Assembly (NCBI RefSeq): GCF_900095705.1
Contig: NZ_LT608327.1
Location: 744,001 to 808,000, forward strand
DNA from: Fusobacterium massiliense
GTDB taxonomy: Bacteria; Fusobacteriota; Fusobacteriia; Fusobacteriales; Fusobacteriaceae
DNA: 64,000 nt
Reading direction: 5' to 3'
Shown: one piece after another, positions 7,095-47,373 of the stretch
Position numbering within the stretch: position 1 is the stretch's first letter
Layout: the number at the start of each line of letters is the position of its first letter
The notes under the pieces: model-generated
The model's input: only the letters and a program-made list of their open reading frames with translations
What the model was told of the DNA's origin: nothing
The model's database searches: none
Translations under genes and position numbers: made by a program

Positions 7095-7910
7095 TTATTT
7101 TTTTAAACTTAATATTTCTCTTGCTTCATCAGGTGTTGCAATTTCTCTACCTAGCTCCTTTGCTAGTCTTACAACTCTTTCAACAAGTTCTCCATTTGAT
7201 TTTGCTAAAACTCCTTTGTCTATATATACATTATCTTCAAATCCAACCCTTACATGTCCTCCCATAACTATTGCTAAGGCAGCCATTTGGAATTGATGTC
7301 TTCCTACACCTGCAACAGTCCAAGTAGAACCTTCTGGTATGCTTTCAGACATAAATACTAAATCTCTTGCAGATGCTGACATTTGTACACCTAATACAAA
7401 ATCAAAATGCATTGGTTTTTGTATAAATCCTTGTTTTTGATATCTTATAGCATAATCTATCATACCTTTATCAAAAACTTCTATTTCTGGTTTTACTCCT
7501 CTTTCAATAAGAATTTTTCCAAAATTTTTAATTGTATTTTCTGTATTTACAAAAACTTCATCTCCACCAAAATTACAAGTTCCACAATCTAACGTTGCCA
7601 TTTCTGGATGCAACTCTGTAGGTTGTAATCTTTCTAAATCTGTCATTCCTACAGCTCCACCAGTAGATGGTTGTATTATTACATCAGGACATTTTTCTCT
7701 TATTGCATCTATACATTTTTTAAATCTTTCTTTATCTTGAGTTGGAGTTCCGTCGTCTTCTCTAACATGTAAATGAATTATACTGGCTCCAGCTTTATAT
7801 GCTGACTCTGCTTCTCTTGCTATTTCTTCAACAGTATAAGGAACGGCAGGATTATGTTCTTTTGTTACCTCAGCTCCACAAATAGCTGCTGTTATTATTA
7901 ATTTTTCCAC
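7095..7910 (-). CDS. kce: 3-keto-5-aminohexanoate cleavage enzyme
   Basis: A 271-aa TIM-barrel BKACE-family enzyme. It uses acetyl-CoA to split 3-keto-5-aminohexanoate into 3-aminobutyryl-CoA and acetoacetate. The Zn-binding pair H46 and H48 lies in HLHVRED, and a conserved acidic residue (E225 in VGFED) lies near the C-terminus, as in characterised Kce. The DGTPTQ loop after the histidines is also typical. It is preceded by GAGGG (GGAGGGTATAAG before the ATG) and lies 24 bp after kal. Confidence 0.95.
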   Translation of the reverse strand: MEKLIITAAICGAEVTKEHNPAVPYTVEEIAREAESAYKAGASIIHLHVREDDGTPTQDKERFKKCIDAIREKCPDVIIQPSTGGAVGMTDLERLQPTELHPEMATLDCGTCNFGGDEVFVNTENTIKNFGKILIERGVKPEIEVFDKGMIDYAIRYQKQGFIQKPMHFDFVLGVQMSASARDLVFMSESIPEGSTWTVAGVGRHQFQMAALAIVMGGHVRVGFEDNVYIDKGVLAKSNGELVERVVRLAKELGREIATPDEAREILSLKK

Positions 7911-7934: not shown

Positions 7935-8321
7935 TTATTTTTTACCTCTTTGTTTGTTTTTAGGTGTTACACAAGTTCCTGTTGCTCTACAAACAACTAT
8001 AGGTTCTGCCAAAACATCAGCAGCTGATTCAGAAATATCTGGTCTTGGAACTATAACTTTTCTTGCTTCAAACACCATTTTTCTTGAGCTATTTCCTACA
8101 TTTACTATTTCACCAACAGCTTCAATATAGTCTCCAGCAAAAACAGGAGCCATAAATTCAACACTGTCATAGGCTTTAAATAATCCTTCATCTCCATCTA
8201 ATTGAATTAAAAGCTCAGTTGCTACATCTCCAAAAAGTTGTAACATTCTTGCTCCATCAACTAAATTTCCACCATAATGTGCATCGTGAGAACTCATTCT
8301 CAATCTGATTAATGATTTCAT
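7935..8321 (-). CDS. kal: 3-aminobutyryl-CoA ammonia lyase
   Basis: A 128-aa hotdog-fold protein. It removes ammonia from L-3-aminobutyryl-CoA to give crotonyl-CoA, linking lysine breakdown to the butyrate pathway. It is first in the operon: AAGGAGGATGGT precedes the ATG, and the leader upstream holds the lysine riboswitch. Length and the N-terminal [13 protein letters not shown] stretch match Kal. It is the smallest gene of the set and would be hard to name without its neighbours, but with kce and kdd adjacent the assignment is secure. Confidence 0.94.
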
Positions 8322-8339
8322 ACCATCCTCCTTAAAATA

Positions 8340-8602
8340 AACCTAACCTAATAATAAAAATAGAGGTATACATGGTTTGCCCAATCCTATTCTGTATCGA
8401 TTAAAGAAAAACTATAAAATAGCTCTCCATACTCAAAAAGAATATGACAGTCAATGTTCGTTTACATTGACCAAGAAACTTAACTATAAGCAGTTAATGT
8501 TCTTTCGGCAACTATGCTCTTCGAAACAAAGTATCGAGGCTTATCTCTTAACAACTTTGCTCTACCTTACATACATGCACCTCTATTTTTCATTATTTAT
8601 TT
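8340..8602 (-). promoter_or_regulatory. Lysine riboswitch (L-box) in the leader of the lysine-fermentation operon
   Basis: Read on the minus strand, the leader begins with AAAATAGAGGTGCATG, contains the L-box hallmark GCCGAAAG, and closes with GGAGAGCTATTTT. The 5' AAAATAG (8583-8589) pairs with CTATTTT (8416-8422) to form P1 of the aptamer, spanning about 8412-8590. Arms with clear self-complementarity lie between, for example GTCAATGT/ACATTGAC. The downstream part (8340-8411) is the expression platform. It contains AGAATAG (8387-8393) and a second CTATTTTT (8356-8363). It sits between the operon promoter (8650-8677) and kal. Confidence 0.9.
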
Positions 8603-8649: not shown

Positions 8650-8677
8650 ATTATATTATTTAAAAAAATAATGTCAA
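8650..8677 (-). promoter_or_regulatory. Sigma70-type promoter of the lysine operon
   Basis: On the minus strand TTGACA (8677-8672) is followed after 16 bases by TATAAT (8655-8650). Both hexamers are perfect. Transcription would begin near 8643, about 50 bases before the riboswitch aptamer. Confidence 0.85.
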
Positions 8678-8796: not shown

Positions 8797-8832
8797 AAAA
8801 CTATGATATTATTAGGTTAATATCATAGTTTT
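8797..8832. repeat. 14-bp perfect dyad (hairpin or operator)
   Basis: AAAACTATGATATT at 8797-8810 is repeated in inverse at 8819-8832 around an 8-base loop. On the minus strand it is followed by a T-rich run, so it could terminate leftward transcription. On the plus strand it lies ten bases before the start of the 48-aa ORF and could be an operator. The sequence does not decide between these. Confidence 0.5.
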
Positions 8833-8842
8833 AGAAGATCAT

Positions 8843-8989
8843 ATGGAACAAAAAGAGACTCTAGATAAAAATAAAGCAAAAGAAATAATTTTTACTAAAG
8901 AGTATATGAGACTTATACCTAAGGAATTTGAGGATAAAAAAGAATTTATTTTAAATATTATTGTGAAAGAAATAAAAAAAGTCTCTTGA
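8843..8989 (+). CDS. Possible small protein, 48 aa, unknown
   Basis: An ATG at 8843 opens 48 codons of charged, helix-prone sequence (it starts MEQKETLDKNKAKE), and its TGA stop lies inside the adjoining dispersed palindrome. Codon use is Fusobacterium-like and the composition looks protein-like. The ribosome site is weak (AGAAGAT) and no clear promoter is seen. It may be a genuine small gene or the remnant of a longer one whose 3' end was replaced by the repeat. No family recognised. Confidence 0.35.
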   Translation: MEQKETLDKNKAKEIIFTKEYMRLIPKEFEDKKEFILNIIVKEIKKVS

Positions 8990-9090
8990 CAGCCGTATGA
9001 GTTTTTACGAGCTCAATGAAATACTCTCCAGAGTAATACGGACGTCGGAGACTAATTTTTATACTAAATTTATACTCTCCTATAGAAAAA
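8980..9090 (+). repeat. Dispersed palindrome copy 1 (hybrid loop) with right flank
   Basis: Core 8980-9053 begins AGTCTCTTGACAGCCGTATG and ends ATACGGACGTCGGAGACT. Its left inner arm is like the common loop type and its right inner arm like the rarer one. The AT-rich flank with the TATACTctCCTATAGAA motif follows to about 9090. Confidence 0.9.
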
Positions 9091-38954: not shown

Positions 38955-39062
38955 TTCTATAGGAAAGTATAAAAATAAATAGCAAAATTAGTCTCTGATG
39001 TCCATATTACTCTGGAGAGCATTTCAGTGAGCTCGGAAGAGTCATACGGCTGTCAGGAGACT
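38949..39062 (-). repeat. Dispersed palindrome copy 9 (second loop type), reverse
   Basis: Core 38990-39062 with inner arms ACTCT/AGAGT instead of AGTTC/GAACT. The flank (TTCTATAGGAAAGTATA on the plus strand) lies to the left at 38949-38989, as expected for a reverse copy. Confidence 0.92.
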
Positions 39063-39075
39063 TTATTTATTAATC

Positions 39076-42184: not shown

Positions 42185-42297
42185 TTTTTTATTCTATAGA
42201 AAAGTATAAATTTAATATGAAATTAGTCTCCGACATCCGTATTACTCTGGAGAACATTTCGGTGAGCTCGAAAGAGTCATACGGCTGTCAGGAGACT
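42185..42297 (-). repeat. Dispersed palindrome copy 11b (second loop type), reverse
   Basis: Core 42225-42297, flank TTCTATAGAAAAGTATAAAT at the left. It directly abuts copy 11a, giving a tandem of two elements. Confidence 0.9.
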
Positions 42298-42317
42298 TTA
42301 TTTATTTAAATCAACAT

Positions 42318-47239: not shown

Positions 47240-47350
47240 TTTATTTATAAATAAAGTATAAATTTAATATAAAAATTAGTCTCCGACGTCCGTATTACTC
47301 TGGAGAGCATTTCGGTAAGCTCGGAAGAGTCATACGGCTATCAAGAGACT
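47240..47350 (-). repeat. Dispersed palindrome copy 12 (second loop type), reverse
   Basis: Core 47278-47350 with ACTCT/AGAGT inner arms; a shortened flank lies to the left (47240-47277). It starts about 23 bases after the stop of the DUF1667 gene. Confidence 0.9.
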
Positions 47351-47373
47351 TTATTTATAAAGTTAAAATTAAT

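What the first reader, a model, noticed from the sequence alone, without database searches (positions are those of the whole stretch)
8340..8602. Lysine riboswitch in front of a complete lysine-degradation operon
The leader carries the L-box hallmarks (AGAGGTGC, GCCGAAAG, closing P1) and lies directly before kal-kce-kdd-kamABCDE. Lysine riboswitches usually repress lysine synthesis or uptake when lysine is high; here the controlled genes destroy lysine, so the expected sense is the opposite, or the control serves another purpose. The motif and its position are seen; the sign of control is inference. Regulation of fusobacterial catabolic genes by L-boxes may already have been noted in comparative surveys.
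Basis: partly seen in the sequence, partly recalled or inferred. Interest (0 to 1): 0.72.

Follow-up and report, generated by a model that had tools for sequence, protein, structure and literature searches.

The report
Lysine-sensing RNA likely switches on lysine breakdown
A real lysine-sensing RNA sits before the genes this Fusobacterium uses to ferment lysine, and its anatomy, unlike the usual lysine switches in the same bacteria, suggests that lysine turns these genes on by stopping the RNA's own front end from building a "stop transcription" hairpin.

Summary
RF00168 hits window 8593-8412 (minus strand) full length, 75 bits against a cut-off of 30, 90 nt before kal-kce-kdd-kamABCDE; seven of the eight proteins in the window and the whole KamE match their NCBIfam equivalogs.

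The riboswitch-kal link is already published, including in F. nucleatum, with "positive regulation" stated on the basis of a review.

What I add is the likely mechanism. In 19 of 19 Fusobacteriaceae kal leaders analysed, the six bases before the U-run pair with the aptamer's own 5' strand (P1-J1/2-P2). In most, an inner helix also pairs the P2 3' strand with the platform. A flush local terminator is weak or absent (median -3.8 kcal/mol). Thirty-two other lysine riboswitches of the same family, before transport or biosynthesis genes, have strong local terminators (median -13.1; 28 of 32 local). This includes a second lysine riboswitch beside the operon, before an NhaC-like antiporter.

Best reading: without lysine, a terminator wraps around the dismantled aptamer; lysine locks the aptamer and transcription proceeds (ON). 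Clostridial kal leaders also read as ON, but through the P1 3' strand.

No binding or transcription data exist here. Judged a new variant of a known kind.

The parts
8650..8677 (-). sigma-70 promoter TTGACA-N16-TATAAT; spacer holds the palindrome ATTATTTTTTTAAATAAT, a possible CarR box
   Evidence: 12 of 12 consensus matches; CarR-box idea is inference from PMC12186487
8412..8593 (-). lysine riboswitch aptamer (RF00168), P1-P5
   Evidence: 75 bits, full length
8574..8590 (-). segment 1: aptamer 5' strand (P1 5' - J1/2 AGAGGUGC - start of P2)
   Evidence: pairs with 8374-8356 in the unconstrained fold
8507..8511 (-). segment 2: end of P2 3' strand / J2/3 (UUGCC)
   Evidence: pairs with 8381-8377
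8377..8381 (-). segment 3: platform GGCAA, complement of segment 2
8356..8374 (-). segment 4 plus U-run (CAUGUAUACCUCUAUUUUU): 3' arm of the proposed wrap-around terminator
   Evidence: duplex with segment 1 -18.9 kcal/mol, z -4.2 against shuffles
8327..8333 (-). Shine-Dalgarno AAGGAGG of kal
   Evidence: sequence; unpaired in the predicted fold
7935..8321 (-). kal, 3-aminobutyryl-CoA ammonia lyase
   Evidence: NF052388, 197 bits, cut-off 160
7095..7910 (-). kce, 3-keto-5-aminohexanoate cleavage enzyme
   Evidence: NF052387
6029..7075 (-). kdd, L-erythro-3,5-diaminohexanoate dehydrogenase
   Evidence: NF052381
4638..5915 (-). kamA, lysine 2,3-aminomutase
   Evidence: TIGR03820
3618..4634 (-). 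kamB, lysine 5,6-aminomutase reactivase subunit
   Evidence: NF052386
2135..3616 (-). kamC, lysine 5,6-aminomutase reactivase ATPase
   Evidence: NF052383
598..2172 (-). kamD, lysine 5,6-aminomutase alpha
   Evidence: NF052384
1..598 (-). kamE, lysine 5,6-aminomutase beta (cut by window edge; whole in L001 1805-2593)
   Evidence: NF052385

Best explanation
This is a lysine riboswitch that turns the lysine-fermentation operon ON when lysine is present, by transcription control. Shown by sequence: an intact lysine aptamer; a platform with segment 4, complementary to the aptamer's 5' strand and flush with the U-run; segment 3, complementary to the P2 3' strand; no strong local terminator. Inferred: without lysine, the platform invades the aptamer as it is transcribed. 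Segment 3 takes the P2 3' strand, freeing the 5' strand, which captures segment 4 exactly at the U-run. The resulting wrap-around terminator encloses the rest of the aptamer and stops transcription. With lysine bound before segment 4 is made, P1/P2 are locked, segment 4 stays free and RNA polymerase reads into kal. The terminated fold is predicted 14-27 kcal/mol more stable, so the choice would be kinetic.
For: Full RF00168 match. Unconstrained folds of the 19 analysed Fusobacteriaceae kal leaders have the 5' strand paired with the pre-U segment: 19/19 against 3/32 control lysine riboswitches; local pairing at the U-run 0/19 against 28/32; flush local terminator median -3.8 against -13.1 kcal/mol. 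Segment 1:4 duplex -11.4 to -20.9 kcal/mol; z against shuffles -0.9 to -5.9, against a mean of +0.07 for controls. Clade-swap test of both helices: 43 of 40,320 permutations as good. Compensatory change at J1/2 position +5 (U-A to A-U in genus g14), a base unpaired in the aptamer; further two-sided changes at 2:3 positions -3, -2, -8 and 1:4 positions +10, +13, +14, +16. Apo fold favoured by 14-27 kcal/mol. Fifteen clostridial kal leaders show ON-type platforms using the P1 3' strand. Controls sit before NhaC-type, YfcC-like, lysA, lysC and related genes. Gene logic: the operon destroys lysine.
Against: No binding or transcription data. The 5' strand pairs with the platform in the predicted fold of 13/32 control riboswitches too, so pairing alone is not diagnostic. 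Segment 1:4 is AU/GU-rich; in genus g4 its z is only about -0.9 to -1.7, and 2:3 is no better than shuffles in g6 and absent from the full fold of g6 and of one g14 leader. Two near relatives (L117, L118) have a possible local hairpin (about -10) at a second U-run. One kal leader with a riboswitch (L132) has no qualifying U-run and was left out. A terminator spanning over 200 nt is unusual. Folding ignores tertiary contacts. In F. nucleatum an rnfC mutant has raised lysine but lower kamA RNA (PMC10790702), and CarR also binds this promoter (PMC12186487), so lysine is not the only input.
Confidence: 0.72

Rival explanations
1. Ordinary OFF switch: with lysine bound, a local hairpin before the U-run terminates; without lysine the 5' strand sequesters the terminator's 3' arm and acts as antiterminator.
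For: A weak local hairpin (AGAAUAGG/UCUAUUUU, -3.8 kcal/mol flush) exists in the window; about -10 at a second U-run in L117/L118; 5'-strand pairing also occurs in some riboswitches read as OFF.
Against: Flush local hairpins in kal leaders are 0 to -7 kcal/mol while 28/32 control riboswitches of the same family have clear local terminators; the 5'-strand helix would itself be flush with the U-run; it would shut lysine fermentation down when substrate is plentiful.
Confidence: 0.12
2. Control is not by termination but by translation or RNA decay (as in E. coli lysC): the rearrangement changes ribosome access or RNase sites.
For: The rearranged fold covers much of the aptamer, as reported for E. 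coli lysC-type models (PMC13273304).
Against: The window's kal Shine-Dalgarno is unpaired in the predicted full-leader fold; a U-run sits exactly at the end of the switching helix in all 19 analysed leaders.
Confidence: 0.1
3. The aptamer is a relic or senses something else (for example a pathway intermediate), with the real control at the promoter by CarR.
For: CarR binds the F. nucleatum lysine-degradation promoter (PMC12186487); the score (75 bits) is lower than those of most family members.
Against: All consensus core motifs are intact, and the aptamer stays upstream of kal in all 20 of the best-matching Fusobacteriaceae Kal loci and in at least 15 clostridial loci.
Confidence: 0.06

Closest known systems
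Lysine riboswitch upstream of kal (F. nucleatum, C. sticklandii, Thermoanaerobacter), Mukherjee et al. 2017, PMC5584792
   Same: Same RNA family, same gene, same phylum; positive control already stated there, citing the review by Serganov and Patel 2009
   Different: The passages I read give no expression-platform mechanism, and it describes a single kal gene rather than the eight-gene operon; the wrap-around platform is not described in the passages I could read
Classical L-box OFF switch (B. subtilis lysC; here L001 before the NhaC-like gene)
   Same: Same aptamer, transcription control, U-run near the start of the gene
   Different: OFF switches have a strong separate terminator hairpin; it is missing in kal leaders
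ON switches of the pbuE adenine type, and clostridial kal leaders found here
   Same: Ligand prevents a terminator that would consume an aptamer strand
   Different: There the P1 3' strand is the terminator's 5' arm (for kal; pbuE from general knowledge); here the aptamer's 5' strand is used, with an inner helix taking the P2 3' strand
E. coli lysC lysine riboswitch / full lysine covariation model (PMC13273304)
   Same: Rearrangement reaches deep into the aptamer
   Different: E. coli lysC is a translational and RNA-decay OFF switch (PMC5584792)

Membership tests
Lysine riboswitch (RF00168) | Covariance-model score above the curated threshold | tested here: met
   75.0 bits against 30, full length
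Lysine riboswitch (RF00168) | Conserved ligand-core motifs of J1/2, J2/3, J3/4, J4/5, J5/1 | tested here: met
   AGAGGUGC, GCCGAA, UUGG, GACUGUCA, GGAGAGCUA in the cmscan alignment
Lysine riboswitch (RF00168) | Binds L-lysine | not testable with these tools
   needs in-line probing or calorimetry
OFF-type L-box | Strong local intrinsic terminator downstream of the aptamer | tested here: not met
   best flush hairpin -3.8 kcal/mol in the window, against a median of -13.1 in 32 controls
P1-3'-strand ON switch (pbuE type, clostridial kal) | Terminator 5' arm includes the P1 3' strand | tested here: not met
   pre-U-run bases pair with the aptamer 5' strand instead; met in clostridial kal leaders
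Transcriptional ON riboswitch (general) | Terminator and ligand-bound aptamer are mutually exclusive | tested here: met
   segments 1 and 2 are shared between P1/P2 and helices 1:4 and 2:3; computational only
Lysine fermentation (3,5-diaminohexanoate) operon | kal, kce, kdd, kamA, kamB, kamC, kamD, kamE in one run | tested here: met
   NCBIfam equivalogs above cut-off for all eight

The most novel reading that the evidence does not exclude
Fusobacteriaceae kal leaders use an undescribed expression-platform design: a terminator that wraps around the aptamer. Its 5' arm is the aptamer's own 5' strand, released by a nested invasion of the P2 3' strand, giving a kinetically decided natural lysine-ON switch. 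Lysine catabolism in Fusobacteriaceae and Clostridia would then use the same aptamer with ON platforms of at least three different architectures.
Probability: 0.55. Interest if true: 0.62.

Novelty: new variant of a known kind. Interest (0 to 1): 0.47.

Why it matters
If true, one aptamer class is wired in opposite senses within one bacterium by different platforms: OFF for the NhaC-like gene, ON for lysine fermentation. The terminator would be built from the far end of the aptamer, which is not the usual design. It gives a directly testable natural lysine-ON switch, and a mechanism for control of a pathway that affects coaggregation and fitness of F. nucleatum (PMC10790702).

Tried and rejected
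Searches for experimental work on a natural lysine-ON riboswitch found none in the library; Rodionov 2003 and Serganov and Patel 2009 are not held, so earlier descriptions there cannot be excluded. I considered an OFF platform and rejected it on the weak local hairpin. A forced-flush folding constraint had no effect and was replaced by an explicit hairpin scan. For L117 the local value listed (-7.1) comes from another U-run. The segment 2:3 signal is not uniform (no better than shuffles in g6), so I rest the case mainly on 1:4 and the missing terminator. Ten Fusobacteriaceae Kal loci (L136-L145, 77-81% identity) have no riboswitch within the stretch fetched. Two planned tests were not done: a formal covariance model of the platform, because lengths vary too much between genera, and a phylum-wide family search, because of an accession format error.

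Full report
1. Observation. The minus strand at 8593-8412 matches the Rfam lysine riboswitch over its full length with 75 bits (threshold 30), and nothing else in the window matches a riboswitch family. A perfect sigma-70 promoter lies just upstream. The aptamer is followed after 90 nt by kal and then kce, kdd, kamA, kamB, kamC, kamD and kamE on the same strand; each is confirmed by its NCBIfam equivalog above cut-off (kamE taken whole from L001). The genome is from Fusobacteriaceae: one genus mate has the same contig coordinates for kal and riboswitch as a record titled Fusobacterium sp. (L036). No further name is available.

2. A second lysine riboswitch. The genome holds exactly two RF00168 hits. 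The second lies 320 bp before the window start, between kamE and an NhaC-family antiporter gene. It has an ordinary local terminator AACUUUGC...GCAAAGUU followed by a U-run, as expected of an OFF switch for uptake.

3. Comparative set. Of 61 held genomes of the family, 59 have RF00168 hits and 31 have Kal. The 20 best Kal loci examined all have the riboswitch directly upstream; ten more distant ones do not, within the stretch fetched. As controls I took the 32 lysine riboswitches L001, L003 and L006-L035 from the same family. They precede NhaC-type antiporters, YfcC-like transporters, lysA, lysC and a few others (families named by sequence resemblance, only L001 tested by HMM).

4. Platform anatomy. 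Reading the kal leaders showed that the bases before the U-run are complementary to the aptamer's 5' strand. Unconstrained folds of the analysed leaders share this helix (1:4), and most share a second nested one (2:3) between the P2 3' strand and the platform. One leader with a riboswitch, L132, lacks a qualifying U-run and was left out, leaving 19. In these, helix 1:4 is worth -11.4 to -20.9 kcal/mol and in the window -18.9. Against shuffles the window scores z = -4.2; controls average +0.07. In the predicted fold the six bases before the U-run pair with the 5' strand in 19 of 19 kal leaders and 3 of 32 controls; they pair locally in 0 of 19 and 28 of 32. Flush local terminators have median -3.8 against -13.1 kcal/mol, Mann-Whitney p = 1.7e-8. 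The leaders fall into about eight clades, so that p-value overstates independence.

5. Covariation. Swapping platforms between eight clade representatives gave a total pairing energy as good as the real combination in 43 of 40,320 permutations (1:4 alone 837; 2:3 alone 264). The cleanest single change is at J1/2 position +5, which Rfam shows unpaired in the aptamer: U-A in most genera becomes A-U in genus g14, with AGAGGUGC changing to AGAGGAGC. Other two-sided changes lie in P2 and could partly reflect P2 itself.

6. Energetics. Aptamer plus open platform is less stable than the rearranged fold by 14-27 kcal/mol, more than a lysine affinity in the usual range would pay back (general knowledge). 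So if this works, lysine must bind before segment 4 is transcribed. In the window the rearranged fold starts to win about 44 nt beyond the aptamer and reaches -17 at the end of the U-run.

7. Independent lineages. Fifteen clostridial kal leaders have a different platform. The P1 3' strand forms a hairpin that is itself the terminator (L037, L038, L039, L073, L079, and probably L113), or forms a hairpin upstream of a separate terminator (most others), which I read as an anti-antiterminator. Both give ON logic by standard reasoning. So catabolic kal leaders converge on ON with different architectures; this is inference from structure.

8. What is known. Mukherjee et al. 2017 report lysine riboswitches before kal in F. 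nucleatum, kal-kce in C. sticklandii and a kal-kce operon in Thermoanaerobacter, and say the genes are positively regulated, citing Serganov and Patel 2009 (PMC5584792). The finding is therefore not new as an association. A 2024 review calls the switching sequence most commonly part of the first helix (PMC10907184). A 2026 full-riboswitch covariation study reports aptamer-platform overlap for lysine matching E. coli lysC (PMC13273304). I found no description of a terminator built from the aptamer 5' strand in the passages read, but the library is incomplete.

9. Other inputs. CarR binds the lysine-degradation promoter in F. nucleatum (PMC12186487), and kamA RNA falls in an rnfC mutant despite raised lysine (PMC10790702). 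The riboswitch is thus probably one of several controls.

10. Verdict. The feature is real and the association known. The ON sense is well supported computationally (about 0.85 for ON by any route), and the specific wrap-around terminator is my best explanation (0.72).

Noticed in passing
window 8975-9060 (+); other copies near 38984-39067, 42220-42302, 47271-47355 (-): An about 85-nt element with inverted ends (GTCTCTTGACAGCCGTATGAG...GGAGACT) has 51 matches in this 1.8-Mb genome, most 81-92% identical, and has no Rfam gathering hit; a fusobacterial repeat of unknown nature.
   Followed up: partly
L001 1501-1675 (G000:C6:743506-743680, just outside the window): Second lysine riboswitch between kamE and an NhaC-like antiporter, with a classical OFF-type terminator, so one locus seems to carry lysine switches of opposite sign.
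   Followed up: yes
L135 1-135 and 243-421; G052:C2:239140-239309 and 239374-239545: Lysine aptamers in tandem: a contig-cut one plus a full one before kal in one species, and two about 65 nt apart in another.
   Followed up: no
window 8650-8677 (-): The spacer of the perfect promoter is a palindrome (ATTATTTTTTTAAATAAT) resembling the CarR boxes listed in PMC12186487.
   Followed up: no
L136-L145: Ten Fusobacteriaceae Kal loci with 77-81% identity to this Kal lack any lysine riboswitch nearby, although those genomes mostly have lysine riboswitches elsewhere.
   Followed up: no
window 8800-8832: Inverted repeat AACTATGATATTA/TAATATCATAGTT between the operon promoter and the repeat element.
   Followed up: no
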